Shown piece after piece: positions 15,280-57,157 of a stretch of DNA of 64,000 bases (positions within the stretch are counted from its first letter, which is position 1; each line of letters opens with the position of its first letter). A program made the position numbers and the translations under genes. Under the pieces are notes generated by a model. That model ran no database searches. It was given only the letters and a program-made list of their open reading frames with translations, and was not told the DNA's origin. Origin of the DNA: Halichondria panicea (lineage: Eukaryota > Porifera > Demospongiae > Suberitida > Halichondriidae). The stretch covers positions 8,028,339-8,092,338 of the forward strand of contig NC_087379.1 of the NCBI RefSeq assembly GCF_963675165.1, given 5' to 3'.

Positions 15280-18200
15280 AATAGTAAGCTCCATTGTGTA
15301 CTTTGTAACCTCTTGATTTCAGACCAGTATGTGTGCGTACCTCAATAACCAACAGTAAGCTCCATTGTGTACTTTGTAACCTCTTGATTGCAGACCAGTG
15401 TGTGTGCGTACCTCAAGAACCAACAGTAAGCTCCATTGTGTACTTTAATTTGTAACCTCTTGATTTCAGACCTGTGTGTGTGCGTACCTCAAGAACCAAC
15501 AGTAAGCTCCATTGTGTACTTTGTAACCTCTTGATTTCAGACCTGTGTGTGTGCGTACCTCAAGAACCAACAGTAAGCTCCATTGTGTACTTTACCAGCA
15601 ATTATTGCTGAATCAGCTAAAACGCAGCCACGCCCACGATTTTTAATATGTTTTGTGTGTAAAAAATTAGTTTAGCTACTTATCTTTTTTAGTTCTAATT
15701 CCGGAGGTCTAAACCTTCCTTTAAGCTCAACATTTTTAGTGCAGTAGGTAGTTCAAAGGTTTGTGCAGACTATTCAATCGGGAGGAAGCATGGTACTCTA
15801 TGCAAAGTAAGTTATTAGCTTTTACATTTAAAATTAACAGCTAGAAAACTACGTTTTTTGCAAAATCTCACCTTTGGCTGAATGAACAGCTCCCTCCCGA
15901 TTGAATAGTCTGCACAAACCTTTGAACTACCTACTACACTAAAAATTTAGAGCTGAAAGGAAGGTTTAGACCTCCGGAATTAGAACTAAAAAAGATAAGT
16001 AGCTAAACTAATTTTTTACACACAAAACATATTAAAAATCGTGGGCGTGGCTGCGTTTTAGCTGATTCAGCAATAATTGCTGGTCCCAGTTGGTCCCAGT
16101 CCTTAACCTACCTGAGTGTGTGTGTGTGTGTGTGCGTACCTCAAGAACCAACAGTAAGCTCCATTGTGTACTGTGTAACCTCTTGATTTCAGACCAGTGT
16201 GTGTGCATACCTCAAGAACCAACAGTGAGCTCCATTGTGTACTTTGTAACCTCTTGATTTCAGACCAGTGTGTGTGCGTACCTCAAGAACCAACAGTAAG
16301 CTCCATTGTGTACTTTGTAACCTCTTGATTTCAGACCTGTATGTGTGCGTACCTCAAGAACCAACAGTAAGCTCCATTGTGTACTTTGTAACCTCTTGAT
16401 TTCAGCCCTGTGTGTGTGCGTACCTCAATAACCAACAGTAAGCTCCATTGTGTACTTTGTAACCTCTTGATTTCAGACCTGTGTGTGTGCGTACCTCAAG
16501 AACCAACAGTAAGTCCATTGTGTACTTTTTAACCTCTTAATTTCAGCCGTGTGTGTGCGTACCTCAAGAACCAACAGTAAGCTCCATTGTGTACTTTGTA
16601 ACCTCTTGATTTCAGCCCTGTGTGCATGTGTGTGCGTACCTCAAGAACCAACAGTAGGCTCCATTGTGTACTTTGTAACCTCTTGATTGCAGACCTGAGT
16701 GCGTGCGTACCTCAATAACCAACAGTAAGCTCCATTGTGTACTGTGTAACCTTTTGATTTCAGACCAGTGTGTGTGCGTACCTCAAGAACCAACAGTAAG
16801 CTCCATTGTGTACTTTGTAACCTCTTGATTTCAGCCCTGTGTGTGTGCGTACCTCAAGAACCAACAGTAAGCTCCATTGTGTACTTTGTAACCTCTTGAT
16901 TTCAGACCAGTGTGTGTGCGTACCTCAAGAACCAACAGTAAGCTCCATTGTGTACTTTGTAACCTCTTGATTGCAGACCTGTGTGTGTGCGTACCTCAAG
17001 AACCAACAGTAAGCTCCATTGTGTACTTTGTAACCTCTTGATTTCAGACCTGAGTGCGTGCGTACCTCAATAACCAACAGTAAGCTCCATTGTGTACTGT
17101 GTAACCTCTTGATTTCAGACCAGTGTGTGTGCGTACCTCAAGAACCAATAGTAAGCTCTATTGTGTACTTTGTAACCTCTTGATTTCAGACCAGTGTGTG
17201 TGCGTACCTCAAGCATCATCAGTAAGCTCCATTGTGTACTTTGTAACCTCTTGATTTCAGACCAGTGTGTGTGCGTACCTCAAGAACCAACAGTAAGCTC
17301 CATTGTGTACTTTGTAACCTCTTGATTTTAGACCAGTGTGTGTGCGTACCTCAAGAACCAACAGTAAGCTCCATTGTGTACTTTGTAACCTCTTGATTTC
17401 AGACCTGTGTGTGTGCGTACCTCAAGAACCAACAGTAAGCTCCATTGTGTACTTTGTAACCTCTTGATTTCAGACCAGTGTGTGTGCGTACCTCAAGAAC
17501 CAACAGTAAGCTCCATTGTGTACTTTGTAACCTCTTGATTTCAGCCCTGTGTGTGTGCATACCTCAAGAACCAACAGTAAGCTCCATTGTGTACTTTGTA
17601 ACCTCTTGATTTCAGACCAGTGTGTGTGCGTACCTCAAGAACCAACAGTAGGCTTCATTGTGTACTTTGTAACCTCTTGATTTCAGACCAGTGTGTGTGC
17701 GTACCTCAAGAACCAACAGTAAGCTCCATTGTGTACTGTGTAACCTCTTGATTTCAGACCTGTGTGTGTGCGTACCTCAAGAACCAATAGTAAGCTCTAT
17801 TGTGTACTTTGTAACCTCTTGATTTCAGACCAGTGTGTGTGCGTACCTCAAGCACCATCAGTAAGCTCCATTGTGTACTTTGTAACCTCTTGATTTCAGA
17901 CCAGTGTGTGTGCGTACCTCAAGAACCAACAGTAAGCTCCATTGTGTACTTTGTAACCTCTTGATTTTAGACCAGTGTGTGTGCGTACCTCAAGAACCAA
18001 CAGTAAGCTCCATTGTGTACTTTGTAACCTCTTGATTTCAGACCTGTGTGTGTGCGTACCTCAAGAACCAACAGTAAGCTCCATTGTGTACTTTGTAACC
18101 TCTTGATTTCAGCCCTGTGTGTGTGCATACCTCAAGAACCAACAGTAAGCTCCATTGTGTACTTTGTAACCTCTTGATTTCAGACCAGTGTGTGTGCGTA

Positions 18201-18360
18201 CCTCAAGAACCAACAGTAGGCTTCATTGTGTACTTTGTAACCTCTTGATTTCAGACCAGTGTGTGTGCGTACCTCAAGAACCAACAGTAAGCTCCATTGT
18301 GTACTTTGTAACCTCTTGATTTCAGACCAGTGTGTGTGCGTACCTCAAGAACCAAACAGT
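15280..18360. repeat. 71-bp tandem array with a splice acceptor and donor in every unit
   Basis: About 35 copies of a 71-bp unit, interrupted once by the foldback element at 15594-16084. Each unit consists of accagtgtgtgtgcgtacct plus caagaaccaaca (32 nt), then gtaagctccattgtgtactt plus tgtaacctcttgatttcag (39 nt). The 39-nt part starts GTAAGC and ends TTTCAG, so it has the form of a complete minimal intron, and the 32-nt part that of a micro-exon. Copies differ by single substitutions. The 32-nt segment has no stop in any of its three frames, except in variants carrying caataa. Whether it is spliced is unknown; a 39-nt intron would be very short. Confidence 0.85.
15594..16084. mobile_element. 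491-bp foldback element inserted in the 71-bp array
   Basis: Nearly perfect inverted repeat with arms of about 200 bp. It starts accagcaattattgctgaat and ends with the complement, attcagcaataattgctggt. The short loop contains agcatggtactctatgc. It splits a repeat unit, so it arrived after the array formed. No transposase is encoded, so it is a non-autonomous MITE or foldback element. The very high arm identity suggests a recent insertion. Confidence 0.9.
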
Positions 18361-20565
18361 AAGCTACATTAATAGTTCTACATGTGCTGTGGAATACTCT
18401 GTCTCTTTTATTTCAGCCCTGTGTGTGTGCGTACCTCAATAACCAACAGTAAGCTCCATTGTGTACTTTGTAACCTCTTGATTTCAGACCAGTGTGTGTG
18501 CATACCTCAAGAACCAACAGTAAGCTCCATTAATAGTTCTACATGTGCTGTGGAATATTCTGTCTTATTGATTTCAGACCAGTGTGTGTGCGTACCTGAA
18601 GAACCTACAGTAAGCTACATTAATAGTTCTACATGTGCTGTGGAATATTCTGTCTCTTTGATTTCAGACCAGTGTGTGTGCGTACCTCAAGAACCAACAG
18701 TAAGCTACATTAATAGTTCTGCATGCGCTGTGGAATATTCTGTCTCTTTAATTTCAGACCAGGGCTCTAGGGTTAGGGTTAGGGTGTGTGCATACCTCAA
18801 GAACCAACAGTAAGCTCCATTAATAGTTCTACATGTGCTGTGGAATACTCTGTCTCTTTGATTTCAGACCAGTGTGTGTGCGTACCTCAAGAACCAACAG
18901 TAAGCTACATTAATAGTTCTACATGTGCTGTGGAATATTCTGTCTCTTTTATTTCAGACCAGTGTGTGTGCGTACCTCAAGAACCAACAGTAAGCTCCAT
19001 TAATAGTTCTTCATGTGCTGTGGAATATTCTGTCTCTTTGATTTCAGACCAGTGTGTGTGCGTACCTCAAGAACCAACAGTAAGCTACATTAATAGTTCT
19101 ACATGTGCTGTAGAATATTCTGTCTCTTTGATTTCAGACCAGTGTGTGTGCGTACCTCAAGAACCAACAGTAAGCTACATTAATAGTTCTACATGTGCTG
19201 TGGAATATTCTGTCTCTTTTATTTCAGACCAGTGTGTGTGCGTACCTCAAGAACCAACAGTAAGCCTCATTAATAGTTCTACATGTGCTGTAGAATATTC
19301 AGTCTCTTTGATTTCAGACCAGTGTGTGTGCGTACCTCAAGAACCAACAGTAAGCTACATTAATAGTTCTACATGTGCTGTGGAATATTCTGTCTCTTTT
19401 ATTTCAGACCAGTGTGTGTGCGTACCTCAAGAACCAACAGTAAGCCTCATTAATAGTTCTACATGTGCTGTAGAATATTCAGTCTCTTTGATTTCAGACC
19501 AGTGTGTGTGCGTACCTCAAGAACCAACAGTAAGCTACATTAATAGTTCTACATGTGCTGTGGAATATTCTGTCTCTTTTATTTCAGACCAGTGTGTGTG
19601 CGTACCTCAAGAACCAACAGTAAGCCTCATTAATAGTTCTACATGTGCTGTAGAATATTCAGTCTCTTTGATTTCAGACCAGTGTGTGTGCGTACCTCAA
19701 GAACCAACAGTAAGCTACATTAATAGTTCTTCATGTGCTGTAGAATATTCTGTCTCTTTGATTTCAGACCAGTGTGTGTGCGTACCTCAAGAACCAACAG
19801 TAAGCTCCATTAATAGTTCTACATGTGCTGTGGAATATTCTGTCTCTTTTATTTCAGACCAGTGTGTGTGCGTACCTCAAGAACCAACAGTAAGCTCCAT
19901 TAATAGTTCTTCATGTGCTGTGGAATATTTTGTCTCTTTGATTTCAGACCAGTGTGTGCGTACCTCAAGAACCAACAGTAAGCTACATTAATAGTTCTGC
20001 ATGTGCTGTAGAATATTCTGTCTCTTTGATTTCAGACCAGTGTGTGTGCGTACCTCAAGAACCAACAGTAAGCTCCATTAATAGTTCTTCATGTGCTGTG
20101 GAATATTCTGTCTCTTTGATTTCAGACCAGTGTGTGCGTACCTCAAGAACCAACAGTAAGCTACATTAATAGTTCTGCATGTGCTGTAGAATATTCTGTC
20201 TCTTTGATTTCAGACCAGTGTGTGTGCGTACCTCAAGAACCAACAGTAAGCTACATTAATATAGTTCTACATGTGCTGTGGAATATTCTGATTTCAGACC
20301 AGTGTGTGTGCGTACCTCAAGAACCAACAGTAAGCTACATGAATAGTTCTACATGTGCTGTGGAATATTCTGTCTCTTTGATTTCAGACCAGTGTGTGTG
20401 CGTACAAGAACCAACAGTAAGCTACATTAATAAATCTACATGTGCTGTAGAATATTCTGTCTCTTTGATTTCAGACCAGTGTGTGTGCGTACCTCAAGAA
20501 CCAACAGTAAGCTCCATTAATAGTTCTGCATGTGCTGTGAAATATTCTGATTTCAGACCAGTGTG
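18360..20565. repeat. 90-bp tandem array derived from the 71-bp unit
   Basis: About 24 copies. The 32-nt exon-like part is the same as in the 71-bp array, but the intron-like part is replaced by a 58-nt segment (gtaagctacattaatagttc ... tttgatttcag). Unit length is a multiple of three and one frame has no stop, giving open frames of 401 codons at 18786-19991 and others nearby. The repeated peptide reads VPQEPTVSYINSSTCAVEYS and so on. Alternating a/b variants (ttg/ttt, tac/tcc, tgg/tag) recur every 180 bp, pointing to amplification of dimers. Whether it is translated unspliced, spliced or not expressed is open. Confidence 0.85.
18768..18784 (+). repeat. Interstitial telomere-type repeat
   Basis: tagggttagggttaggg, almost three copies of the animal telomere motif TTAGGG, replaces part of one exon-like segment in the 90-bp array. 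The sequence is plain; its origin (break repair or chance) is inference. Confidence 0.8.
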
Positions 20566-22857: not shown

Positions 22858-25800
22858 ATGGCCGACATACTCAGTGCTGCCAGGGCTGGTGACTTGAGTG
22901 CTTTGCGAGATGCTATCAAGAGGGGAGAGGATGTCAACAGTGTGAAGGTAAGCTGGTTTGCAGAGCTAAAGCTGTGAAAGTCTATTTTTGCTGTCATGCT
23001 ATAAATTTAATACCTACCCAATCAAAAGTTGATTTGGGCGCTGTAAACTACGCTCACTGCACACTCAGTTTGGGGCAAATGGTAAATTCCAAAAAATAAG
23101 TGTAACTATGATCACACAGATGTGTTGTCAGAAGTTATTATTATGCTCTCACTCTTGTAGGATGGGTGGACTCCACTCATGTCGGCAGCCAGGGGAGGGC
23201 ACACTGACTGTGTTATACAGCTACTCTCCTCAGGAGCAGTGGTGGACCTGGCTAACAAGGTGAGTATCTGATACTAAACTGATGGTCTATAGGAGTTATA
23301 ATTATACATGGACATTGCCTTAAAATCACCTCTATGCTGAATAATTGTTGACAAGCATTCCATGGAATTGATTGGGTTGACTATTATTTTGGTTTGTGTG
23401 GATTTTAATCTACCGTCACTCAACTACGAGCTAACTTGCTGAAAGGTTAGAGTTAGTGTTATGTACTTTTGTGTGTGTGGATGGATGACGTCAGATGCAA
23501 CCACTCTATTATAGTAAATATTGCCAATCCTTACTTTATTTGTAATTACAGCACCAACTCTGACTGAATTCCATTATTTAAGTCCTCCAACGGTTGCTGT
23601 AATTAAAAGACGTAATTATTTGTGATGTCAGGCTCAAGGCAGTCGGCTTTTCTTTTATTATGCACATGCATTTGATTTGTAGAGCTGCTGTAAAATACAG
23701 AGACGAAAAATCAAACCGTACAGTTGGTCCACTGCATACTGAAAGATTGCACTCAACACTAGAATAGCTGTGCGCTTAAGCGCCACCATAATATTTTTGA
23801 GGTTATAAAAGTTGATTTAGGCGCTGTAAACTACGCTCACTGCACACTCAGTTTGGGGCAAATGGTAAATTCCAAAAATAAGTGTAACTATGATCTATCA
23901 CACAGATGTGTTGTCAAAAGTTATTATTATGCTCTCACTCTTGTAGACTGGGTGGACTCCACTCATGAAGGCAGCCAGGGGAGGGCACACTGACTGTGTT
24001 ATACAGCTGCTCTCCTCAGGAGCAGTGGTGGACCTGGCTGACGAGGTGAGTATCTGATACTAAACTGATGGTCTATAGGAGTTATAATTATACATGGACA
24101 TTGCCTTAAAATCACCTCTATGCTGAATAATTGTTGACAAGCATTCCATGGAATTGATTGGGTTGACTATTATTTTGGTTTGTGTGGATTTTAATCTACC
24201 GTCACTCAACTACGAGCTAACTTGCTGAAAGGTTAGAGTTAGTGTTATGTACTTTTGTGTGTGTGGATGGATGACGTCAGATGCAACCACTCTATTATAG
24301 TAAATATTGCCAATCCTTACTTTATTTGTAATTACAGCACCAACTCTGACTGAATTCCATTATTTAAGTCCTCCAACGGTTGCTGTAATTAAAAGACGTA
24401 ATTATTTGTGATGTCAGGCTCAAGGCAGTCGGCTTTTCTTTTATTATGCACATGCATTTGATTTGTAGAGCTGCTGTAAAATACAGAGACGAAAAATCAA
24501 ACCGTACAGGTGGTCCACTGCATACTGAAAGATTGCACTCAACACTAGAATAGCTGTGCGCTTAAGCGCCACCATAATATTTTTGAGGTTATAAAAGTTG
24601 ATTTAGGCGCTGTAAACTACGCTCACTGCACACTCAGTTTGGGGCAAATGGTAAATTCCAAAAATAAGTGTAACTATGATCTATCACACAGATGTGTTGT
24701 CAGAAGTTATTATTATGCTCTCACTCTTGTAGACTGGGTTGACTCCACTCATGGTGGCAGCCAGGGGAGGGCACACTGACTGTGTTATACAGCTACTCTC
24801 CTCAGGAGCAGTGGTGGACCTGGCTAAAAAGGTGAGTATCTGATACTAAACTGATGGTCTATAGGAGTTATAATTATACATGGACATTGCCTTAAAATCA
24901 CCTCTATGCTGAATAATTGTTGACAAGCATTCCATGGAATTGATTGGGTTGACTATTATTTTGGTTTGTGTGGATTTTAATCTACCGTCACTCAACTACG
25001 AGCTAACTTGCTGAAAGGTTAGAGTTAGTGTTATGTACTTTTGTGTGTGTGGATGGATGACGTCAGATGCAACCACTCTATTATAGTAAATATTGCCAAT
25101 CCTTACTTTATTTGTAATTACAGCACCAACTCTGACTGAAGTCCATTATTTAAGTCCTCCAACGGTTGCTGTAATTAAAAGACGTAATTATTTGTGATGT
25201 CAGGCTCAAGGCAGTCGGCTTTTCTTTTATTATGCACATGCATTTGATATGTAGAGCTGCTGTAAAATACAGAGACGAAAAATCAAACCGTACAGTTGGT
25301 CCACTGCATACTGAAAGATTGCACTCAACACTAGAATAGCTGTGCGCTTAAGCGCCACCATAATATTTGTGAGGTTATAAAAGTTGATTTGGGCGCTGTA
25401 AACTACGCTCACTGCACACTCAGTTTGGGGCAAATGGTAAATTCCAAAAATAAGTGTAACTATGATCTATCACACAGATGTGTTGTCAAAAGTTATTATT
25501 ATGCTCTCACTCTTGTAGTATGGGCGGACTCCACTCTATTGGGCAGCCAGGGGAGGTCACACTGACATTGTTAGACAGCTGCTCTCCTCAGGAGCAGTGG
25601 TGGACCTGGCTGACAAGGTGAGTATCTGATACTAAACTGATGGTCTATAGGAGTTATAATTATACATGGACATTGCCTTAAAATCACCTCTATGCTGAAT
25701 AATTGTTGACAAGCATTCCATGGAATTGATTGGGTTGACTATTATTTTGGTTTGTGTGGATTTTAATCTACCGTCACTCAACTACGAGCTAACTTGCTGA

Positions 25801-28800
25801 AAGGTTAGAGTTAGTGTTATGTACTTTTGTGTGTGTGGATGGATGACGTCAGATGCAACCACTCTATTATAGTAAATATTGCCAATCCTTACTTTATTTG
25901 TAATTACAGCACCAACTCTGACTGAATTCCATTATTTAAGTCCTCCAACGGTTGCTGTAATTAAAAGACGTAATTATTTGTGATGTCAGGCTCAAGGCAG
26001 TCGGCTTTTCTTTTATTATGCACATGCATTTGATTTGTAGAGCTGCTGTAAAATACAGAGACGAAAAATCAAACCGTACAGTTGGTCCACTGCATACTGA
26101 AAGATTGCACTCAACACTAGAATAGCTGTGCGCTTAAGCGCCACCATAATATTTTTGAGGTTATAAAAGTTGATTTAGGCGCTGTAAACTACGCTCACTG
26201 CACACTCAGTTTGGGGCAAATGGTAAATTCCAAAAAATAAGTGTAACTATGATCACACAGATGTGTTGTCAAAAGTTACTGTATGCTCTCACTCTTGTAG
26301 GATGGGTGGACTCCACTCATGAGGGCAGCCAGTAGAGGGCACACTGACTGTGTTATACAGCTGCTCTCCTCAGGAGCAGTGGTGGACCTGGCTCACAAGG
26401 TGAGTATCTGATACTAAACTGATGGTCTATAGGAGTTATAATTATACATGGACATTGCCTTAAAATCACCTCTATGCTGAATAATTGTTGACAAGCATTC
26501 CATGGAATTGATTGGGTTGACTATTATTTTGGTTTGTGTGGATTTTAATCTACCGTCACTCAACTACGAGCTAACTTGCTGAAAGGTTAGAGTTAGTGTT
26601 ATGTACTTTTGTGTGTGTGGATGGATGACGTCAGATGCAACCACTCTATTATAGTAAATATTGCCAATCCTTACTTTATTTGTAATTACAGCACCAACTC
26701 TGACTGAATTCCATTATTTAAGTCCTCCAACGGTTGCTGTAATTAAAAGACGTAATTATTTGTGATGTCAGGCTCAAGGCAGTCGGCTTTTCTTTTATTA
26801 TGCACATGCATTTGATTTGTTGAGCTGCTGTAAAATACAGACACGAAAAATCAAACCGTACAGTTGGTCCACTGCATACTGAAAGATTGCACTCAACACT
26901 AGAATAGCTGTGCGCTTAAGCGCCACCATAATATTTTTGAGGTTATAAGAGTTGATTTAGGCGCTGTAAACTACGCTCACTGCACACTCAGTTTGGGGCA
27001 AATGGTAAATTCCAAAAATAAGTGTAACTATGATCTATCACACAGATGTGTTGTCAAAAGTTATTATTATGCTCTCACTCTTGTAGGATGGGCAGACTCC
27101 ACTCTTTTGGGCAGCCTATAATGGTCACACAGACTGTGTTAGACAGCTGCTCTCCTCAGGAGCAGTGGTGGACCTGGCTGACAAGGTGAGTATCTGATAC
27201 TAAACTGATGGTCTATAGGAGTTATAATTATACATGGACATTGCCTTAAAATCACCTCTATGCTGAATAATTGTTGACAAGCATTCCATGGAATTGATTG
27301 GGTTGACTATTATTTTGGTTTGTGTGGATTTTAATCTACCGTCACTCAACTACGAGCTAACTTGCTGAAAGGTTAGAGTTAGTGTTATGTACTTTTGTGT
27401 GTGTGGATGGATGACGTCAGATGCAACCACTCTATTATAGTAAATATTGCCAATCCTTACTTTATTTGTAATTACAGCACCAACTCTGACTGAATTCCAT
27501 TATTTAAGTCCTCCAACGGTTGCTGTAATTAAAAGACGTAATTATTTGTGATGTCAGGCTCAAGGCAGTCGGCTTTTCTTTTATTATGCACATGCATTTG
27601 ATTTGTAGAGCTGCTGTAAAATACAGAGACGAAAAATCAAACCGTACAGTTGGTCCACTGCATACTGAAAGATTGCACTCAACACTAGAATAGCTGTGCG
27701 CTTAAGCGCCACTATAATATTTTTGAGGTTATAAAAGTTGATTTAGGCGCTGTAAACTACGCTCACTGCACACTCAGTTTGGGGCAAATGGTAAATTCCA
27801 AAAATAAGTGTAACTATGATCTATCACACAGATGTGTTGTCAAAAGTTATTATTATGCTCTCACTCTTGTAGGATGGGGATACTCCACTCAATTCGGCAG
27901 CCAGGAGAGGTCACACTGACTGTGTTATACAGCTGCTCTCCTCAGGAGCAGTGGTGGACCTGGCTCACAAGGTGAGTATCTGATACTAAACTGATGGTCT
28001 ATAGGAGTTATAATTATACATGGACATTGCCTTAAAATCACCTCTATGCTGAATAATTGTTGACAAGCATTCCATGGAATTGATTGGGTTGACTATTATT
28101 TTGGTTTGTGTGGATTTTAATCTACCGTCACTCAACTACGAGCTAACTTGCTGAAAGGTTAGAGTTAGTGTTATGTACTTTTGTGTGTGTGGATGGATGA
28201 CGTCAGATGCAACCACTCTATTATAGTAAATATTGCCAATCCTTACTTTATTTGTAATTACAGCACCAACTCTGACTGAATTCCATTATTTAAGTCCTCC
28301 AACGGTTGCTGTAATTAAAAGACGTAATTATTTGTGATGTCAGGCTCAAGGCAGTCGGCTTTTCTTTTATTATGCACATGCATTTGATTTGTAGAGCTGC
28401 TGTAAAATACAGACACGAAAAATCAAACCGTACAGTTGGTCCACTGCATACTGAAAGATTGCACTCAACACTAGAATAGCTGTGCGCTTAAGCGCCACCA
28501 TAATATTTTTGAGGTTATAAGAGTTGATTTAGGCGCTGTAAACTACGCTCACTGCACACTCAGTTTGGGGCAAATGGTAAATTCCAAAAATAAGTGTAAC
28601 TATGATCTATCACACAGATGTGTTGTCAAAAGTTATTATTATGCTCTCACTCTTGTAGGATGGGCAGACTCCACTCTTTTGGGCAGCCTATAATGGTCAC
28701 ACAGACTGTGTTAGACAGCTGCTCTCCTCAGGAGCAGTGGTGGACCTGGCTGACAAGGTGAGTATCTGATACTAAACTGATGGTCTATAGGAGTTATAAT

Positions 28801-31800
28801 TATACATGGACATTGCCTTAAAATCACCTCTATGCTGAATAATTGTTGACAAGCATTCCATGGAATTGATTGGGTTGACTATTATTTTGGTTTGTGTGGA
28901 TTTTAATCTACCGTCACTCAACTACGAGCTAACTTGCTGAAAGGTTAGAGTTAGTGTTATGTACTTTTGTGTGTGTGGATGGATGACGTCAGATGCAACC
29001 ACTCTATTATAGTAAATATTGCCAATCCTTACTTTATTTGTAATTACAGCACCAACTCTGACTGAATTCCATTATTTAAGTCCTCCAACGGTTGCTGTAA
29101 TTAAAAGACGTAATTATTTGTGATGTCAGGCTCAAGGCAGTCGGCTTTTCTTTTATTATGCACATGCATTTGATTTGTAGAGCTGCTGTAAAATACAGAG
29201 ACGAAAAATCAAACCGTACAGTTGGTCCACTGCATACTGAAAGATTGCACTCAACACTAGAATAGCTGTGCGCTTAAGCGCCACCATAATATTTTTGAGG
29301 TTATAAAAGTTGATTTAGGCGCTGTAAACTACGCTCACTGCACACTCAGTTTGGGGCAAATGGTAAATTCCAAAAATAAGTGTAACTATGATCTATCACA
29401 CAGATGTGTTGTCAAAAGTTATTATTATGCTCTCACTCTTGTAGGATGGGGATACTCCACTCTATTGGGCAGCCAGGAGAGGTCACACAGACAGTGTTAG
29501 AGAGCTGCTCTCCTCAGGAGCCGTGGTGGACCTGGCTAACAAGGTGAGTATCTGATACTAAACTGATGGTCTATAGGAGTTATAATTATACATGGACATT
29601 GCCTTAAAATCACCTCTATGCTGAATAATTGTTGACAAGCATTCCATGGAATTGATTGGGTTGACTATTATTTTGGTTTGTGTGGATTTTAATCTACCGT
29701 CACTCAACTACGACCTAACTTGCTGAAAGGTTAGAGTTAGTGTTATGTACTTTTGTGTGTGTGGATGGATGACGTCAGATGCAACCACTCTATTATAGTA
29801 AATATTGCCAATCCTTACTTTATTTGTAATTACAGCACCAACTCTGACTGAATTCCATTATTTAAGTCCTCCAACGGTTGCTGTAATTAAAAGACGTAAT
29901 TATTTGTGATGTCAGGCTCAAGGCAGTCGGCTTTTCTTTTATTATGCACATGCATTTGATTTGTAGAGCTGCTGTAAAATACAGAGACGAAAAATCAAAC
30001 CCTACAGTTGGTCCACTGCATACTGAAAGATTGCACTCAACACTAGAATAGCTGTGCGCTTAAGCGCCACCATAATATTTTTGAGGTTATAAAAGTTGAT
30101 TTAGGCGCTGTAAACTACGCTCACTGCACACTCAGTTTGGGGCAAATGGTAAATTCCAAAAATAAGTGTAACTATGATCTATCACACAGATGTGTTGTCA
30201 AAAGTTATTATTATGCTCTCACTCTTGTAGAATGGGAGTACTCCACTCATGTGGGCAGCCAGGGGAGGTCACACTGATAGTGTTAGACAGCTGCTCTCCT
30301 CAGGAGCCGTGGTGGACCTGGCTGACAATGTGAGTATCTGATTGTGTTTATAGGCAGCATGTTTGTGACCATTAATTTTCATCATTTGGTAAATGAAATA
30401 TTTGCGCATGTACTTACAATTATGCACATTGCCAGTATTTTAATTGTTACGTTTTGCTTATAATTTTACGCTTATCTTGCTTATTTGTGTCTAAGTTGAC
30501 GAACTGGGCTACATACGTTTTCGTGGATATGTTGTACACAAATGAATAATTATGATACGTAGCACTTAAAAGGTTGTACAGTTTAATAACATAGCTGGAT
30601 AGTTGCATTTTTGCTCTTTGCCAATCCCTTTCCTTTACTTTATTTATGGTCTATCGCACAGATGTGTTCTCAAAAGTTACTGTATGCTCTCACTTTTGTA
30701 GGGTGTCTGATTTGCTAAATTTTCTGTGACGTACATACGTATATATACATGCTGTTGTAGGTGTACTGTCATCATTGTTAAGTACATGTACTGACAATCA
30801 CATGCATGACTGTACATTTCCTTAGTGCTTTAAACTGATGTCCCAGCCGGTTTTAATTTTTTATGTACTGTACGAGGTTGTTGTGCTTGTGTTCTCACTC
30901 TAGGATGTGGTTGGAAATGTAGAGCAGTGAATGTCTGTATTGTTCAGTTTACATTCATATTGTGTTGTCACTGTCTCCACTCTTGCAGGATGGGGACACT
31001 CCGCTCATGGAGGCAGCCCGCAGTGGACGGAAAGATACAGTAATACAGCTTCTCTCAGCAGGGGCTTCCCCTCTCTCCACTAATAATGTGAGCACATGTA
31101 CTTTATAGAGTACATAGTTGCGTAGTTATACTTAATGAACAATTTTACATGTACTGTACACCTATACCTCTTACAGTAGTTAATGACTGAACAGAGCTGT
31201 CATTTGTACCTTAACAGATAACTCTTAATGTGCTATTACCATTGCCAGTATCGCTCTGTCAGCAAAGTACATGTCATACACATTAGACCACTTTTACCTT
31301 TTACAATGTACGTCTCATCCCTTCATATGGTCATCATCACAGGATGGAGAGACTCCTCTGACGATGGCCAAGAAATCACCTGACTCTACCCCTTCAGTAA
31401 TAAAGCTGCTGGAGGAAGCTACTGAATCACATGTGAGTCCATACCTCAATAATGCACACACTGATCACAGAGGAGGTACAATTAGCCTCCTCTGCATTGA
31501 TCATAAGTGTTTTAGTTTAAGAGTTTGTTGTTCCTGAATTACAAATACTGTAACATTCATCAAAAACACATTAATCAACCTTTCACCAAGAGGAAGAGTA
31601 CGCAACTCCACTTAAAACAGTAGTAGGCGTTTCTTCAACCCTCCGTCACAACCACATGCTGTTGCATAAACTGTGAAATCAAATTTGCAATGAATAACAT
31701 AGTGAACAAAAATTAAAAACAGAGTAAAGACAACGGATTTAGAGCTTGTCAGAGGTCATGGTGGTGTAAACTTACTTCTCTAGAGTACCTCCCAGCCCTG

Positions 31801-34800
31801 AGTGATCGCTAGTAGATAGGAGAGCTAGAAATAGTTGAAATAACAACCCGAGTACGGTCAAAACGAAAATATTTGCGGGCGCAAAATCATAACGCGAAGT
31901 GTTTCAACCATTTACACAGGGAGGCCTGGTCCCCTTCCTTTTCGGTATAGCCTATTATTGTATATTGTTGTGGCTCATGTTAGTATCTGTGGTGATGATC
32001 AAGAGGTGTTGTTAGCATTCAAGCTATAGGTGTACATATTGTACAGTATCGATTAGTATTCTAGTAGACGTGCATTGCATGGATAATTGAAGCGTGGAAT
32101 ATGTATTATATTGTATTGCTCTTCACAGGACCATGATACAGTCAGAGAAGAGGTGTCTTCTAAATTAGGTATGTCAGCAAGAACAAGGCTATAACTATAA
32201 TATTGTGTGTGGAAGTGTTCTACAGTAGCGGTCAATATAAAGTACAGTGACGCTACTGTACCAAACACAGTTCTTGTCTCACTATAATCTGAACTAGCTT
32301 ACGTCAGCTGGTAATTTACCAAACTCAGACTCAGTTTTACTCATTCTGCAAAAGAATATAATTTACTTACTTAATAGGCATAATTATTCTATACTGCAGA
32401 TAATTCACCTGCCCCATATCTTACCATCATTATGTCTCCAATATTGAGTATGTAAGCTTAGCTGCATTGGTGTTATGGTAATTGTTCACGCCACTAATCA
32501 ATGTATAATTATAGGACCATCCGCTAAACGAGTCACTCTTCAAGAACTAGTAGAGCAATACAATCTGACTGACGAGCAACTCAACAGTGAAATAGATGAC
32601 CCTGATACTCCCAAATTGGCCTTATTTTTTGATGATGTGGAACTTTATTCGAGTGCAATGGGGCTAGCTATTGCTGAACAAGCCGATGTGAACCAATCAC
32701 GTGGAACTCAAGCAGCCATGATGAAGTGCTTGCAAATCTGGAAACAACATAATCCTTCACAAGCAACTTACAGAGCTCTACTGGATATCGCACTGAGATT
32801 GGGGAAAGGAGACACAGCTCATCAAATCTGCCAGCAACTGACCCAACGTAAGTACATGTACACATGTTACTACATGTCAGGTGATAACCACCCTCCACCT
32901 AAGCCCTCTACTAAGTAGCTATTCGACTCATATCCATAATTACCGGTATTAATATTGAAATCACAACAGAGAAGACAATCCCTATAGATTGTGACCATCA
33001 TGCATGCATGCTTGTACACATCCCTCCTAGACAGCACTGTTGAGTATAAGCGAGGTATAGGGTAATGTGTTTGTGTGTAGACTGTTAGAGCTGCTCAAGG
33101 ATCAATGAATGCAAGTAAGAGTTTCTATAAGCTTCTAGTCATGTTTTCGTATTTGTGGATTTGCAAAATAATGCTTTGTTCTCGAGTTATGCCTAGTTTT
33201 GCTTACTTGGAATGCCATTGCAGCCTTTTCTTTTCAGAAGAGTCCGTAGCAAAACTTGTTTACCGAGTGTTGCTACTCTACTTAGTATAGTTAGCTCTGC
33301 ACTAGAACGCTAGCTATTGGTAGCTGCAAGAGTGAGAAGAGAGCTGCAAGGCTCTGCTGATGGCAGCCATTAATTTTAGACTTGAATTTTTGGCATTGAT
33401 CGTTTTTAACAACAATCATCGTCGATCATTACCCACTATTTGAGTTTCCCTGTGATTGTGTATTCTGCGCAGCAAAATTAAAAATGTTTATCATGATAAT
33501 TATAATCAGCGTGTGTATAAAAGCTAGCTATTAGTAGTTTTATGCCGGTTATGTAGCTTTGGCACCTCCACCGAGGCATCAGCACCCGCGATGCTTTCAT
33601 TATTTATATCAATCTGTGTATAAAAGCTAGCTATTAGTAGCTTTATGTTATGTATCTTTGGCACCTCCACCGAGGCATCAGCACCCGCGATGCTTTCATT
33701 ATTTATATCAATCTGTGTATAAAAGCTAGCTATTAGTAGCTTTATGTTATGTAGCTTGGCACCTCCACCGAGGCATCAGCACCTGCGGTGCTTTCATTAT
33801 TTATATCAATCGGACCTCAATTTTGATACAAAAATGTGCCACAAAAATAATAATTATTTACCACTACTTTGGTTCAATAATATTACCGATTGTTTACTTT
33901 TTTACAGTCAATATTCAAAACCGAACCTACTTAAAAAAACTGGATGAGCTGATGGCCGACACAAGTGGCACTATAGAGCTACATTATCTCAAGACGCACT
34001 TTATTGGTCCCTCGGGTCTTGGCAAAACGACCACTCGACAGCGGCTTGTTGGATCCATCACTAACCTGTCTTTGCTGCCTGAAGATCAAAGGAAACGTTG
34101 CAGTACATTACTAGCCGAGTGTGAACAAGTATTGGCCTTTGTGGACAAATCTGGAACAAAGCTTGAATTCAAAGCATCTTCAAGTCTAGAGGAAGAAACA
34201 CAGTTTATCTTCTCTTACCTTATGTCCTGTGAACCTATTGAAGACAGCACTGTCAGCAATACTAGTACACCTAAGGAACAGCCCAAAAAAGAAACCACTA
34301 ACCCAAAGAAGCAAACTCAACTCAAGATCGATGAAGCTGCTACTGTACCCAAAGAAACGGTATCACCAACACCAGAACCACCGGAAAAGGTCGTGAAAGT
34401 GACCACTGTAGATGTTGGAAAGGTTGTCTCGAGACTCCGGAGTATTGTGGGTTCAGGAGAGTACACTAAAGAGCTGCTGAACAAAGTCCTACTCAATCTA
34501 GTCGATATAGGTGGGCAGCCTGGATTCGTGGAGATGTTTCCTTTTCTAAGCAAAGGCGCAGGGATTTTCCTAGTATTCTTTCGACTGGACAAAGACCTCG
34601 ATGACATGTGTCAAGTCTCCTACGAACGAGGAAAGGACAAGATCACACCGTACGATTCAACGTACACAAGCAGAGAAACGGTCTCTCAAATCCTGTCAGC
34701 TATCAGCCACCATACCAAGATTGACTCGGACATTGACAGAGAGCAGTGTAGTAAACTGGGCAATCTAGGCTCTGCTAAGCCTGTTGCTACCCTCATAGGT

Positions 34801-37800
34801 ACTTTCAAGGATGAACTGGCAATGCAAATCAAAGTCGATCTCCTGTACGAGAAATGTTGTGCCTCCACAAAAGCTGTCAGCAAAAGCGATAGTACCACTG
34901 CCAGCAAGAGCGATAGTACCACTGCCAGCAAGACCACTACCAGCAAGACCACTGCCAGCAAGAGCGATAGTACCACTGCCAGCAAGAGCGATAGTACCAC
35001 TGCCAGCAAAAGCGATAGTACTACAGCCAGCAAGAGCCATAGTACCACTGCCGACAAGAGCGATAGTACCACTACCAGCAAGAGCGATAGTACCACTGCC
35101 AGCAAGAGCCATAGTACCACTGCCGACAAGAGCGATAGTACCACTTCCAGCAAGAGCGATAGTACCACTTCCAGCAAGAGCGATAGTACCACTGCCAGCA
35201 AGACCACTACCAGCAAGAGCGATAGCACCACTGCCAGCAAGACCACTGCCAGCAAGAGCGATAGCACCACTGCCAGCAATACCACTACCAGCAAGAGCGA
35301 TAGTACCACTGCCAGCAAGAGTGATAGTACCACTGCCAGCAAGACCACTGCCAGCAAGAGCGAAAGCACCACTGCCGACAAGAGGGATGGCACCACTGCC
35401 GACAAGAGCGATGGTACCACTGCCAGCAAGAGCTATGGCACCACTGCCAGCAAGAGCGATAGTACCACTGACAGCGAGAGCGATGGCACCACTGCCAGCA
35501 AGAGCTATGGCACCACTGCCAGCAAGAGCGATGGCACCACTGCCAGCAAGAGCGATGGCACCACCGGCAACAAGAGCGATGGCAACACTGCCAGCAAGAG
35601 CAATGGCACCACTTCCAGCAAGAGCGATAGTACCACTGCCGACAAGAGCCTAAATGAACACGAACAAAAGAAAGCAATTCGGAATATTTTGACTCAACTG
35701 AAGAGTGATGAGCCTGCTAACGTCAGTGCAGAAGACATGGCTGCCATTGAGCAAACAGTCAGCCAACACCTCAACTCAGACACTTTCAAGAAAGATGTCC
35801 AAGACCGCTTAGAGCAAAAGTTGACAGAGAAAAACGAAGCTGTGAGCAAGATTACCAGCAAGTTTGAGAAATTACTTTCACACCCAAAAGACAAGAAGTT
35901 CATAGCAGTCGACAACTATGAAGGCACTGATTCTGATATGGAACCTCTTCGTGAACATCTTCATGGCATATTCAGTAGCTATTTCAAAGATGCCAAGCTT
36001 CGAATTCGCCCACAACAGCTTTTGTTGGGAGTTGTACTGAGAAAAGAGTATGACATTGTGTCTATGGAAGAATGCATTCGTATCGGTACCGAGGGGTTAA
36101 AGATGAGTGAGGAGGAAGTTCGATTCACCGTTTGGTACCTTGATCGATTTGTCGGAGCTTTGATATATCATCCAGAGATCAAGGATAAAGATGGTTGGTT
36201 TGGAAACTTTGTCATTTGCAACCCCCAAGTGGTATTCAACAGCCTCAGTGTTCTCGTTGTCAATCCGCTGCTGGAGCTCCATTCTGAAGAGGGCAATATT
36301 CAGTTTAACGATAATGAGAGAAAAAATTGGATACTCAAGGGTCAATTCTTACTGAAAACAATCACTCGATGCCATTCGGAGGAAAACCAGGGGGTGAAGA
36401 AAGACCAGTTGATTCCTGTTGAGAAGCTGCTCATACTGCTCGAGCATTCCCACCTTTTGGCCAAAATCACAACAGTGGAGGAAGACCATACCACAGAAGA
36501 AGTTGAAACGACATATTTCATCCCCGCTATTCTCAAGTGTGCATCTCGCGAGGAACTAACGAAACCACCCCCCACTGGCATTGATACACCCTCTCCAATC
36601 AAGATCACATTCAAACCCCAATACGTTCCCATTGGAGTATTTTGTGCCATGATCAGTGAATTGGTCTCAAGGGGGAGTACTGGAATTCTGGGCATGACTT
36701 GGAAACTTGCCACTGATACCTCAGTAAAGAGAAACCTCGTCTCCTTTCACATTGACGAATCTGCCAAGCATTTTGTTACCCTTATCGCTAACGTCGATTG
36801 CTATGAGATACGGATTATTCGACAGGACAGGGACCATACGATGCACGAGCTTTGTTCCTACGTCCTCTCAACCCTCCTGTTGGTGATGAAGGACATCAGT
36901 CCACTACTCACTCCAATCATTGCCTTCGACTGCTACTGTGGCAAACATGAAGATGGTTCCAAGCTTTGTCTCCTCACACCTGGAGCTGATCCCTGCTTTA
37001 AATGCACCAGCAAAGTCTCTCTGAGTCCTCACCAAGAATGCTGGTTCGCAGAAGTAAGTGAACTAACAGTTACAGTGTATGCACTATAAGAATTACCATT
37101 CCTGTGTACTAGCATTTAATTTTAGTATCAGATTATAACAGTTTTTTGTGTATTTAACTATTAATATTATGTGTGCAAGCATTCATTGTACATTGTTTTT
37201 TGTACAAAGATCAAAGGAAGAACTATGCAAATGCCATAGACTAGGATCTACAACTGTAGTAAACAGAAACTGTGCTCTATTATTCTGTGGTTGGAATTTT
37301 TGGTAGTTAGAGCACGGTTGGTGGTCAAAATAATTGATTTTAAGCCATAGAATTTTATAATAGCTACAACTGCTCCATGGTTGCAATGCGAGTACAGCTA
37401 AGTGATTCTATAAGCTTCTAGCAATGCTATCTTTCTAACAAAGGCTTTATTCTCGAGTAAAGGCTAGCTTTGCTTACCAGTACGTTGAAGGCCATTGCAG
37501 ACTCTCCAGAATCAGGAATAGCAAAATATTTTCGTAGAAAGTTGCTATTCTACATACTAGAGCCGATAGCTATTGGTAGCTGCAAGCAACTAAAAGTTAC
37601 AAACCAGTTAATGCACTGTTTTATGCTCGTGCTCTATGGATATTTTGGCCTCGCGGAAGTTCTCGAAGCATCATGTAGCACTTGGCTTCGCCTCGAGCTA
37701 TTGGCCAATAATATCCATAATATATAGAGCACTTGCAACCGTGCATTAACTAGTACGTATCCCTGTGTACAGGAAGTCAGTCTGAGAGAGGATGTTACTC

Positions 37801-53141: not shown

Positions 53142-56100
53142 CTATTCAAACCACACCTGCAGTTTACTGGGGGCATCCCCCACGTTCAATACTGTGTGCC
53201 TCCAGTGCTGATTCAGCACAACGGGCGTGGAGGCACTCGTTCGTTCGGCAATGTGTAGCCGTAGCCCTGGTAACCAACAGTCGCACAAAAACTGTAGATT
53301 AGATCTGAGGAAACGCAGCACTTGTGGACAGACGCTCTCCAACGTAGTACAGTCGTCTGATAGCGATAGGTGAAGCTTCGGGTCCACTCCGCTGTTTGTA
53401 GACGAGTCAATCAACCGTGAAATGTTATCTGATGGCATAAGATCGGTCTGATCCCCTATTAGGTGTGCTATGCTTGAGCAGGTGGGGGAGAACTCGTATT
53501 GTGCTTCTTTCGACTGACAAGTTGAGCAGAAATGGGTCACGTTTGATTGCACAAGACAAGCAATTGAAGTGTGCTCCTTCCACAGAATGAGATGGTGTGT
53601 GGAGTTGAGTCGAATGTGGGCCATTTGGTAGTAGAAGGTCGGCTCGTACTGACAACTTCGTACACAGCGTACTACAAGCTGGGTGAAGATAGCAATAGGA
53701 AGGGCAGACTCTCCGGCCGTAAAGTAGAGGGGGGTGGGGTCTGTATCCATGGGGATGTAGAACGGATCGGGGGCTCCAACTACGACCATCGCCGGTAGAT
53801 AGTACGAATTTTTCTCGTGCAGTGAAGGATGACAACAGATAATGTCCATGCAGTTAAGAATGAACAACATTTCGTTCCAGTGCCTCTGGCCCATGCGTGC
53901 ACAGCGGTAGGCCAGACTCAGCATGTCCCTACTGATCACTCCTTTCTTGCCGAGCTTCGTGAATGCATTCTGTACCTCCGGAGTGACCCAGTTGCCGGGA
54001 TGGGAGGTGATGATCGAACCAAGCGACGAGGCCAGCCATTGTGGACGAATAATCACCAACTTGCTCAACTCGGGATGTCGATAGAAGAACACAATCGTGC
54101 CCATATCGTGAAACTGAGAGAGAACCGGTAGAATACGAAGTGGCCCAGTCATCGAACAATGCTCGCTGATGTACTTTGAGAGGTCATCGTACAGAAGTAT
54201 CACTTTCTTTTGCTGCTGTAGACCACACAATAGTTGCTCAAACTTGACCCACTGAATCGGAACCTCGTCACAAATGTACGGCATCTGACGAGCCAAATAG
54301 TCGACTTCACGACGCAAAATATGGTGCCCACTGTAGTGAAACTCTTCGTCCAGCTCCTCGCTGCTGTTGAAGATTGTCTCCGAGTGGTTGCTCACTCCAA
54401 CAGCTGTCGGATTTGAGTACTCGACCAAATGCTTTTGGTATGTTTCGAAAGACTTTCGGTCGAAAAACCGGACAAAATCGGTTGCAGACTCCTGGCCTTT
54501 ACCGGCATCGATCTTTGTGCAGGTGATGATGATGGGTGGTAGCACTGGTGTCTTGTTGGTACACTTGAAAGGTAAGGCTGGCGTCTCTTTAGTGTGGGCA
54601 GTAGCACATCCAATCCAACTTTCCAGTACTTCGGCATTCGTGGGGAAAGATCCATCAACGTTTCGGAGATCCTTAGATTGATAAGATTCACACACATCGT
54701 CTAAACCATGAGTGATGTCATAGGCAGTGATGAAAATGGAGCGATCGGAATAGAAGAAGGGTACAAAGTTCAACTGCAGGGGATCACCTGATGCGTCCCA
54801 CACGTTCATCATGAGGCGATTTGAGTTGAGCTCAGAGCGATCTTGAAACTGTTCGTCTCCAACCGGCCATCGAATTATCATTCTCCTCAGCATTTCTGAC
54901 GGCATTTTCTCCGCTAGTAATCGCGATGGCTCTCGTGTCGGACGAATAAAGTTAAAAAGTGGCGGAGGAGGAGACTCGGCCTTGGCCTGCTGCTGTGAGC
55001 TCTGACTGCTCTCCTGGCGGTTTGCAGCCGAAGGTGTCAGGTTTAGCCGGGGTTTCATGATAGGAGAAACACGTCCGTTGGTGGAGGGCGGGTCGGCCAG
55101 GAGGTAGCTGTCTGGAGAGTCAGGGCTGGTAGTGGGAGTTATTTCTCGGTCCAGTTCAACTAGACGACTGATTCGATCGTCGTCTTCTGAGGGTTCTTTA
55201 ATACGCACACCAATCGTCGTCGATGGGTTATCATTTACGTGTACTTCTTCCTGCCATTGGACAGTTTCGTTTCGTTTCGTCTCCTCATTGGCTGGATTTG
55301 GTGGTGGTTGGTGTTTTGATACTACCCCGGGAGTTTTGCGGAGTATTCCTCTGATGCTGACCTCTGATCCCTCACTGCTAACGGAGGTGGGGCTAGATGG
55401 GGACGAATGGTCGGAAGGGGGTGTGTCAGTTGCCATGGTTTTGTTGTTGGGTTCAGCAGAGTTAGCGAGGAGGCTACTTGATGATAGTTCAGTGGGAGAG
55501 GGCTTGTTCGGGATGATACTATCCGTGGCGTTGAAATTGACCGATTTTGGACGTTCTTTCTCCTTTTGGAAGCCCATGGATTCTATCATCTCATCTTGAA
55601 CAACCTGAGCATGCAAAGAGAACAAGTCAAAACATCACATCTTTGTGCCTATAATAACATACATTCTAATACAATTGTTCTAACTACACACTGGCATACA
55701 ATCACAGATCCCATGTAGATTAAAAGTCTTATCCCCAAAATAGATTTTCTAGAGTACTAGAGTCGGCTCTGTAACTAGTGAAAACTTAGAAGGAGCTCTT
55801 TCAGTTGGTATATGCCAAATTTGGAATGAGTTAATTTTTGGAAAAGAATGAGTGTGGTCGCACTCCTGATTGGTCGCCACTCCTGATGTGGTATTTATCA
55901 CCGAGAATAGACCTTTGATTTTTAACACATCATCTGAAAGGCCTCTCTCTAAGCTTACAGAAAATCATAAAATTTATGTTATTGTACCAACGGAACTAAA
56001 GTTATGGCCGTTCAAAGATGCTCTGTTTCAGAAAAATACCATGGGCTAGCTACTAGAACAGAATGTACAGTGAACTGAATGGCCTCCTACGGCTTCTGTC

Positions 56101-56529: not shown

Positions 56530-56596
<67 letters not shown>

Positions 56597-57124: not shown

Positions 57125-57157
<33 letters not shown>

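What the first reader, a model, noticed from the sequence alone, without database searches (positions are those of the whole stretch)
22990..30340. Ankyrin exon array: introns nearly identical, exons diversified at loop codons
Ten ankyrin exons sit in a roughly 786-bp tandem duplication. The introns (about 690 bp) differ by only a few bases, so the duplication is recent or homogenised. The 99-nt exons differ far more per base, and the changes cluster. Position 1-3 reads DGW, TGW, TGL, YGR, DGQ, DGD or NGS; after TPL comes MS, MK, MV, YW, MR, FW, NS or MW; then RGG, SRG, YNG or RRG; and the last codons are NK, DE, KK, DK, HK or DN. In an ankyrin repeat these are the beta-hairpin tip and the exposed face of the first helix, the usual binding surface. 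The remainder (SSGAVVDLA) is invariant. Faster exon than intron change suggests positive selection on a recognition surface.
Basis: partly seen in the sequence, partly recalled or inferred. Interest (0 to 1): 0.93.

Follow-up and report, generated by a model that had tools for sequence, protein, structure and literature searches.

The report
Animal ankyrin receptor array with shuffled exons
An animal gene carries ten near-copies of one ankyrin exon whose introns stay almost identical while mainly the codons on the likely binding face differ, as expected if the gene family builds and keeps a repertoire of recognition proteins.

Summary
Confirmed and extended. The ten 99-nt ankyrin exons differ by 12.7% on average, their nine introns by 0.50%. 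The window lies in a 131-Mb animal genome (Wnt present), and its gene is one of at least 15 sister loci on contig C3; I read 83 array exons there, 76 distinct. In 41 exon+intron units from 12 sources, exon diversity is 13.7% and intron 0.67%, with the break at both splice sites. Twenty-two pairs with identical introns differ 5-18% in the exon. Twelve codons vary (picked because they vary; pN about 0.35), the other 21 hardly (pN 0-0.019). The twelve include five of six positions randomised in engineered ankyrin binders. Array introns are less diverged between genes than silent sites of gene bodies (0.7% against mostly 2.5-7.5%), so the array is homogenised, not merely young. Best explanation: concerted evolution plus diversifying selection on the binding face of an intracellular ankyrin, Death-like, GTPase-like receptor. 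Precedents: fungal NLRs, brown-algal LRR-ROCO genes. Against a simple story: five exon silent sites are also polymorphic and whole-exon pN/pS is only 1.6-1.75. The recognition role is inferred.

The parts
22858..22947 (+). first coding exon, [30 protein letters not shown] (N-terminal cap)
   Evidence: ATG, open frame, donor gtaagc; tblastn matches at all 15 main-cluster loci read, 69-100% identity
23161..23259 (+). array exon E1
23260..23946 (+). array intron I1, 687 bp; the other introns repeat it
   Evidence: genome copies
23947..24045 (+). array exon E2
24733..24831 (+). array exon E3
25519..25617 (+). array exon E4
26301..26399 (+). array exon E5 (preceded by the 683-bp intron)
27087..27185 (+). 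array exon E6, identical to E8
27873..27971 (+). array exon E7
28659..28757 (+). array exon E8, identical to E6; the introns before both share two private variants
29445..29543 (+). array exon E9
30231..30329 (+). array exon E10; similarity to the array ends about 13 bp after it (by eye)
30989..31087 (+). ankyrin exon outside the array ([33 protein letters not shown]), C-terminal cap type
31343..31432 (+). last ankyrin exon ([30 protein letters not shown])
   Evidence: tblastn matches at 14 of 15 main-cluster loci read
32514..32888 (+). Death-like domain (exon limits not determined)
   Evidence: Pfam Death E 6e-4, 20.3 bits against cut-off 22.6; 19 of 21 members of the paralogue alignment match at E<=0.1; relatives
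33877..34911 (+). P-loop GTPase-like domain resembling Roc
   Evidence: Pfam Roc E 0.0086, 16.8 bits against cut-off 27; 7 of 7 alignment members at E<=0.5; 93-99% identical segments at six sister loci
34874..35649 (+). in-frame 24-bp tandem repeat, Ser/Thr/Lys/Asp-rich linker
35617..37089 (+). C-terminal region, COR-like by position and weak similarity only
   Evidence: COR-A in 1 of 6 alignment members, E 0.0048, none in the window member; weak collinear match to the window's other COR-A gene, probability 4%, E 0.009

Best explanation
The array is the variable recognition part of an intracellular receptor-like protein: ankyrin repeats, then a Death-like domain, then a Roc/COR-like GTPase. 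It is one of at least 15 linked sister genes. Shown here, from sequence patterns: units have been exchanged within and between genes on both strands; introns and framework codons are nearly identical; exon segments are shuffled. Inferred from those patterns: exchange is by unequal crossing-over and short-tract gene conversion, and selection favours, or refuses to erase, amino-acid differences at about 12 codons of each repeat, most of them on the ankyrin binding face, so each gene carries a different binding surface in front of a conserved signalling part. Inferred only: that the surface binds microbial, parasite or non-self proteins and that the Death/GTPase part signals defence or cell death.
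For: Exon diversity 13.7% against intron 0.67% in 41 units; 22 pairs with identical introns differ 5.1-18.2% in the exon; the break is at both splice sites. Highest 99-bp window inside the intron 1.8%. The 12 variable codons have pN 0.35-0.36 and pS 0.04-0.07; the other 21 have pN 0-0.019. Most amino acids at variable codons are encoded by one codon, and the third base of codons 1, 17, 18 and 20 is invariant in 83 exons: selection on protein, not general exon mutability. Silent sites 15-39 nt apart show all four combinations (codons 13/21, 13/26, 15/26, 21/26), and association decays within about 10 codons: recombination inside exons. 121 of 123 exon cores in the window and 20 stretches are intact 99-nt AG..GT exons. 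Between sister genes the GTPase frame has pS 2.5-3.7% (three genes) and the Death-like part 2.5-7.5% in nine of ten pairs, 0 in one, against 0.68% for array introns between genes. The signalling part is 93-99% identical in protein segments at six sister loci. A simulation without selection gives exon diversity equal to intron diversity; with selection and tracts of about 30 bp it gives the observed values at variable codons and flanks.
Against: The 12 codons were chosen because they vary, so their pN is high by construction; unbiased whole-exon pN/pS is only 1.56-1.75, and no codon-model likelihood test was run. Five silent sites are polymorphic, several at intermediate frequency, and the best-fitting simulation does not reproduce them (1.1% against 9.0% at framework third positions). 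Codon 18, a core position, also varies (V/I/T/A/G). Cap exons outside the array have pN above pS too (0.166/0.115, six exons). The 5.317-Mb array has pN/pS 0.62 (six exons, one of them a cap exon). Arrays at 5.42-5.53 Mb have few exon types. Death, Roc and COR matches of this gene are below Pfam cut-offs or absent, and the Death-like profile hit only solenoid repeats in PDB. Three of six sister GTPase frames show an in-frame TAG. No expression, binding or population data.
Confidence: 0.72

Rival explanations
1. Recent amplification only: the units were copied very recently, and strong positive selection then fixed new amino-acid changes, without continuing homogenisation or retained older alleles.
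Against: Gene bodies are older than the array introns. Recombination within exons is frequent. Five silent exon sites at intermediate frequency are not expected. The exon framework is shared with other clusters whose introns are mostly unrelated.
Confidence: 0.15
2. Exon-targeted diversification: a mutagenic or RNA-templated process (DGR-like, deaminase, or conversion from spliced cDNA) changes the exons up to the splice sites.
For: The diversity break is at the splice sites. Codons such as 1, 17 and 18 vary at bases 1-2 and never at base 3 in the main set, superficially like template-directed mutagenesis.
Against: Framework codons between the variable ones are silent-invariant (codons 4, 9, 22, 25, 31), so no general exon mutability. 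Base-3 constancy is what selection on amino acids gives. Ordinary short-tract conversion with selection also gives sharp edges. I did not look for a template copy or a dedicated reverse transcriptase.
Confidence: 0.05
3. Functional constraint on the introns (regulatory or splicing RNA) rather than homogenisation makes them look young.
For: The full 687-bp intron is 98-100% identical in 38 places, some hundreds of kb apart.
Against: Sister exons in other C3 clusters have mostly unrelated introns: in 20 exons sampled, matches were largely limited to about 33 bp after and about 55 bp before the exon, plus a 70-72% stretch in two and short stretches in two others. Part of the intron is a dispersed element.
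Confidence: 0.04
4. Alternative-exon cassette: the exons are chosen by splicing, as in Dscam, rather than all being built into one long repeat domain.
For: All ten window exons are 99 nt and phase 0, so any can be skipped; brown-algal LRR-ROCO arrays are alternatively spliced (PMC11378527, sections 11 and 15 read).
Against: Each exon is a whole repeat that would stack with its neighbours, and identical introns give no exon-specific choice signal (inference). No RNA data; compatible with the best explanation as an added layer.
Confidence: 0.1

Closest known systems
[quoted passage not shown] PMC1805685 passages seen, PMC4986451 passages seen and section 17 read)
   Same: Near-identical repeats exchanged within and between genes; diversifying selection on a few binding-face codons; repeat number varies; ANK examples mostly on the concave face; intracellular signalling protein.
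   Different: NACHT/NB-ARC proteins in fungi. Here an animal gene, one repeat per exon with a homogenised intron, and a Death-like plus Roc-like part; no NACHT or NB-ARC match in the window ORFs given to Pfam.
Brown-algal LRR-ROCO genes (Teng 2024, PMC11378527, abstract and sections 11, 15 read; Zambounis 2012 not held, seen only as cited there and in PMC4104024 passages)
   Same: One repeat per same-phase exon, exon shuffling, positively selected sites on the binding face, ROCO-type GTPase, clustered genes.
   Different: 72-nt phase-2 LRR exons in algae; here 99-nt phase-0 ankyrin exons in an animal, a Death-like domain, and a measured exon/intron contrast.
DARPins, designed ankyrin repeat binders (PDB alignments of two chains; PMC6590788 passage: six randomised positions per repeat)
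   Same: Fixed ankyrin framework with surface positions varied; five of six positions that differ between repeats there (2, 3, 5, 13, 14) correspond to codons 33, 1, 3, 11, 12 here.
   Different: Engineered. Position 33 (codon 31) is invariant here, and codons 7, 8, 17-20 and 32 also vary.
DAPK1 and LRRK-type Roco proteins (architecture recalled)
   Same: Ankyrin, Roc/COR and Death modules occur together.
   Different: No kinase match in the ORFs given to Pfam; different order; very weak sequence similarity; large family in this genome.

Membership tests
Ankyrin repeat | 33-residue repeats matching the ankyrin consensus | tested here: met
   phmmer of five joined exon translations: Ankyrin-1 E 3.7e-116 and DARPins
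Roco (Roc-COR) family | Roc GTPase domain over the Pfam cut-off | tested here: inconclusive
   window member 16.8 bits against 27; 7 of 7 alignment members at E 0.0016-0.5; profile reaches 3dpu 'Rab family protein' (a bacterial Roco, recalled) only at E 0.2
Roco (Roc-COR) family | COR domain directly after Roc | tested here: inconclusive
   No match in the window member; 1 of 6 members E 0.0048; no PDB match
Death domain | Pfam Death over the cut-off | tested here: inconclusive
   20.3 bits against cut-off 22.6; 19 of 21 members E<=0.1; no Death structure among seven PDB profile matches
NLR/STAND receptor | NACHT or NB-ARC NTPase | tested here: not met
   No NACHT/NB-ARC match in the ORFs given to Pfam
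Concerted, diversifying repeat arrays (fungal HNWD type) | repeat exchange between family members | tested here: met
   near-identical introns between genes on both strands; four-gamete silent sites
Concerted, diversifying repeat arrays (fungal HNWD type) | excess nonsynonymous change at binding-face codons | tested here: met
   Nei-Gojobori counts on codons chosen as variable, no codon-model likelihood test
Concerted, diversifying repeat arrays (fungal HNWD type) | high internal repeat conservation (85% identity over 100 aa in PMC4986451) | not tested
   amino-acid identity between repeats was not computed
Concerted, diversifying repeat arrays (fungal HNWD type) | repeat number polymorphism within the species | not testable with these tools
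   one assembly only; array length varies 2-10 between loci
Brown-algal LRR-ROCO | LRR exons of 72 nt, phase 2 | tested here: not met
   ankyrin exons of 99 nt, phase 0

The most novel reading that the evidence does not exclude
An animal has a large, rapidly renewed repertoire of DARPin-like binding proteins (at least 265 exon copies in the genome, those listed all on one contig) used for immune or self/non-self recognition, in which individuals, and perhaps somatic cells, differ by exon shuffling or an exon-limited diversification process.
Probability: 0.12. Interest if true: 0.95.

Novelty: new variant of a known kind. Interest (0 to 1): 0.74.

Why it matters
Variable, concertedly evolving recognition repeats are known from fungi and brown algae. 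This is an apparent animal case, with an internal control (the near-identical introns) that makes selection on the binding face directly visible. It offers a genome-scale natural counterpart to designed ankyrin binders, and a defined locus to test whether an animal renews immune or allorecognition receptors by exon exchange.

Tried and rejected
First exon scan had a one-position error in its template and found nothing; repeated correctly. One search crashed in its last step (window test); its earlier output is used, and the window statistic was redone.

The 129 exon hits were cut to 83 main-cluster and 39 other-cluster array exons. The seven dropped are six cap exons and one exon mis-called as 93 nt. 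One cap exon stayed among the 39 and was removed only; it is part of the pN/pS 0.62 printed for the six 5.317-Mb exons. One search lists some exons of the cluster region that lie outside the stretches I fetched (for example at 7.752-7.754 and 7.845 Mb), so 83 exons and 15 loci are minima; L013 and L014 are counted as one locus by assumption. Of 67 main-cluster introns, 49 were 655-715 bp and 41 of those were at least 98.5% identical to I1; the other introns are not in the core statistic. The 20 extra exons were chosen among places with no mismatch in a 30-base 3' pattern, so conservation of codons 22-31 in them is ascertained. In one search the longest frame of L030 (gene G) was not a homologue (pS 0.83) and was dropped; genes outside the main comparison (5440k, 7064k, 8220k) had Death-like pS 0.056-0.176 and are not in the quoted range.

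An introner-type explanation (the intron inserted repeatedly into old exons) was rejected: the repeat begins about 137 bp upstream of E1 and ends about 13 bp after E10 (by eye), as in ordinary tandem duplication. Assembly artefact was rejected as the main cause: nine different sequences occur among the ten exons.

Not settled: the species. Wnt genes make it an animal; a sponge is my guess from genome size and gene content, not a result. The ten paper searches (one search found none) listed no description of such an array in an animal, judged from titles and abstract openings; the library holds open-licence papers only. The DARPin papers PMC8683736 and PMC8229355 were seen as passages, which did not give the position numbers.
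Full report
WHAT IS THERE. Ten 99-nt exons, each one ankyrin repeat (33 codons, phase 0 at both ends, AG...GTGAGT), lie at 23161-30329 on the + strand with a 786-bp period (one 782). The nine introns are 687 bp (one 683). Variable columns are 29 of 99 in exons and 14 of 688 in introns; mean pairwise difference is 12.7% and 0.50% (Fisher p 3e-18). E6 and E8 are identical, and the introns before them share two private variants, a sign of block copying inside the array. Upstream is a start exon (22858-22947); downstream are two more ankyrin exons (30989-31087, 31343-31432), a Death-like domain (32514-32888) and a long open frame (33877-37089) with a P-loop GTPase region, a repetitive linker and a C-terminal region.

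FAMILY. The window lies at C3:8028339-8092338 of a 131-Mb assembly of 39 contigs. It is an animal: the Wnt family gives 10 matches on three contigs and none in 14 control genomes. A 30-base exon pattern with up to 3 mismatches has 265 places and none for the reversed control; the listing is capped, and all places listed are on C3. The full-length array intron is found 94-100% identical in 43 places between 7.477 and 8.243 Mb, on both strands. In the window and 20 fetched stretches I found 129 exons, of which 83 are array exons of the 7.4-8.3 Mb cluster: 15 loci counting the window (L013 and L014 taken as one), all with the start exon and 14 with the last ankyrin exon. These are minima, since one search lists further exons outside the stretches. 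Loci hold 2-10 array exons; ten are seen in the window and at the L013/L014 locus (8+2). The 83 exons comprise 76 distinct DNA and 74 distinct protein sequences. A search by the conserved 3' part found 123 exon cores: 121 intact 99-nt exons; of the other two, one is a 102-nt exon in frame and one is broken or shifted.

EXON AGAINST INTRON. Of 67 main-cluster introns 49 are 655-715 bp, and 41 of these are at least 98.5% identical to the window's first intron. They come from 12 sources (window 9, and 11 stretches). In these 41 units diversity is 13.7% in exons and 0.67% in introns (48 of 99 and 59 of 687 variable columns). Within a source it is 12.8% and 0.62%; between sources 13.8% and 0.68%. 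Twenty-two pairs with identical introns differ by 5.1-18.2% in the exon. The first 22 bp after the exon have 0.44%, the last 22 bp before it 1.1%, and no 99-bp window inside the intron exceeds 1.8%.

WHICH CODONS. Codons 1, 3, 7, 8, 11, 12, 17, 18, 19, 20, 32 and 33 vary in amino acid; G2, T4, P5, L6, A9, A10, G13, H14, L21, L22, S23, S24, G25, A26, V27, V28, D29, L30 and A31 are fixed or nearly so. In PDB alignments of two DARPin chains the positions that differ between repeats are 2, 3, 5, 13, 14 and 33, which correspond to codons 33, 1, 3, 11, 12 and 31 here; five of the six vary, codon 31 does not. For the 12 codons, which I chose because they vary, pN is 0.347 (pS 0.041) in the window, 0.351 (0.059) in the 41 units and 0.357 (0.071) in the 83 exons; for the other 21 codons pN is 0, 0.016 and 0.019 (pS 0.097, 0.096, 0.110). 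Most amino acids at the variable codons are encoded by a single codon, and third bases of codons 1, 17, 18 and 20 never change in the 83 exons.

RESULTS THAT CUT AGAINST THE SIMPLE STORY. Unbiased whole-exon pN/pS is only 1.56-1.75. Silent variation is not general: framework codons such as 4, 9, 22, 25 and 31 are silent-invariant. It sits mainly in codons 13, 15, 16, 21 and 26, mostly as two states, several at intermediate frequency. Exon silent diversity is thus well above the introns, which new positive selection alone does not give. Retained or hitch-hiking exon alleles may explain it; my simulation did not reproduce it. Cap exons outside the array also have pN above pS (0.166 and 0.115, six exons), and the 5.317-Mb array has pN/pS 0.62 (six exons, one a cap exon).

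RECOMBINATION AND HOMOGENISATION. Silent sites 24-39 nt apart (codons 13/21, 13/26, 15/26) and 15 nt apart (21/26) show all four combinations, and association between codons fades within about 10 codons: exons are mosaics. Between sister genes the silent divergence is 2.5-3.7% in the GTPase frame (W, K, A) and, in the Death-like part of W, A, B, C and K, 2.5-7.5% in nine of ten pairs and 0 in one; array introns between genes differ by 0.68%. The array is therefore homogenised beyond the age of the genes. In other C3 clusters (20 exons sampled) the exon framework is the same but introns mostly share only about 33 bp after and about 55 bp before the exon. At 5.42-5.53 Mb 33 exons have 11 DNA types, so exon homogenisation does happen.

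SIMULATION. In a 41-unit model with mutation scaled to the observed intron diversity (12 settings, five seeds each), no selection gives exon diversity like the intron (0.6-1.0% at the variable codons). Refusing conversions that make exons alike, with tracts of about 30 bp and a 20-fold rate at the 12 codons, gives 37.6% at bases 1-2, 14.1% at base 3 and 0.9% in the flanks, against 38.5%, 14.7% and 0.8% observed. Framework third positions (1.1% against 9.0%) do not fit. The model is simple and was not fitted formally; one search was a single-seed trial of it.

THE REST OF THE PROTEIN. The Death-like domain reaches Pfam Death at 20.3 bits (cut-off 22.6), and 19 of 21 alignment members match at E<=0.1; its profile found no Death structure in PDB, only solenoid repeats over a short stretch. 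It has 150 listed places including itself on twelve contigs (150 of 672 candidates scored). Roc matches 7 of 7 members at E<=0.5, the window's below the cut-off; COR-A matches 1 of 6. The label 'Roc/COR-like' is therefore weak, resting on the P-loop and the DIGGQPGF motif (read from the alignment; their meaning recalled), the order of domains and a weak collinear match to the window's second Roc/COR gene. Segments of this part are 93-99% identical at six sister loci, three of which show an in-frame TAG in a matched stretch.

HOW IT PROBABLY WORKS. Shown: units are exchanged within and between genes; introns and framework are nearly identical; variation is largely confined to the exon and to about 12 codons. 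Inferred: diversifying selection on the ligand face. Inferred further: the protein is an intracellular recognition receptor whose Death/GTPase part signals.

KNOWN RELATIVES. The same logic is described for fungal NLRs with WD, ANK and TPR repeats (PMC4986451, section 17 and passages; PMC1805685, passages) and for brown-algal LRR-ROCO genes (PMC11378527, abstract and sections 11 and 15). PMC4986451 (passage) gives 0.8% as the fraction of such repeats with high internal conservation in metazoans. The passages seen of one sponge immune survey (PMC8242945) do not describe such arrays; other sponge papers were seen only as listings. I rate this a new variant of a known kind: same evolutionary device, a different host kingdom, exon design and effector.

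Noticed in passing
window 16126-20549: Tandem arrays of 71-bp (31.6 copies) and 90-bp (22.9 copies) units; units carry an acceptor-like TTGATTTCAG and a donor-like GTAAGC, and part of the 90-bp array is open in one frame for 402 aa (18783-19991). Could be a mini-exon array or a minisatellite.
   Followed up: no
window 34874-35649: 24-bp in-frame repeat coding [12 protein letters not shown] units inside the GTPase-like frame; paralogous open frames range from 734 to 2394 aa, so its length probably varies.
   Followed up: partly
window 53142-58183 (-): Ankyrin ORF and, downstream of it, an ORF with a COR-A domain above the Pfam cut-off (E 8.2e-9), probably a second ankyrin-Roc/COR gene, very distant in sequence from the array gene.
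   Followed up: partly
G000 many contigs: The Death-like domain has 150 listed places on C1, C3, C5-C8, C10, C12-C15 and C20, with dense runs on C6 3.36-3.67 Mb and C7 5.8-7.2 Mb: a very large gene superfamily.
   Followed up: partly
intron positions 282-629 of the array intron (window 23541-23888 in I1): This part matches dispersed copies on C1, C3, C5, C10, C11 and C15 (78-88%), so the founder intron seems to hold a mobile-element-like insertion.
   Followed up: no
L025-L028 (C3 5.417-5.542 Mb): Long arrays with only 11 DNA types in 33 exons and introns of about 370-1120 bp in a higher-order pattern: apparently amplified recently, with exons homogenised too.
   Followed up: partly
window about 30640-30702: A diverged relic of the array intron's 3' end, with its acceptor but no ankyrin exon after it (seen by eye).
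   Followed up: no
window 58903-61399 (+): Open frames resembling a BTB-kelch protein (by eye).
   Followed up: no
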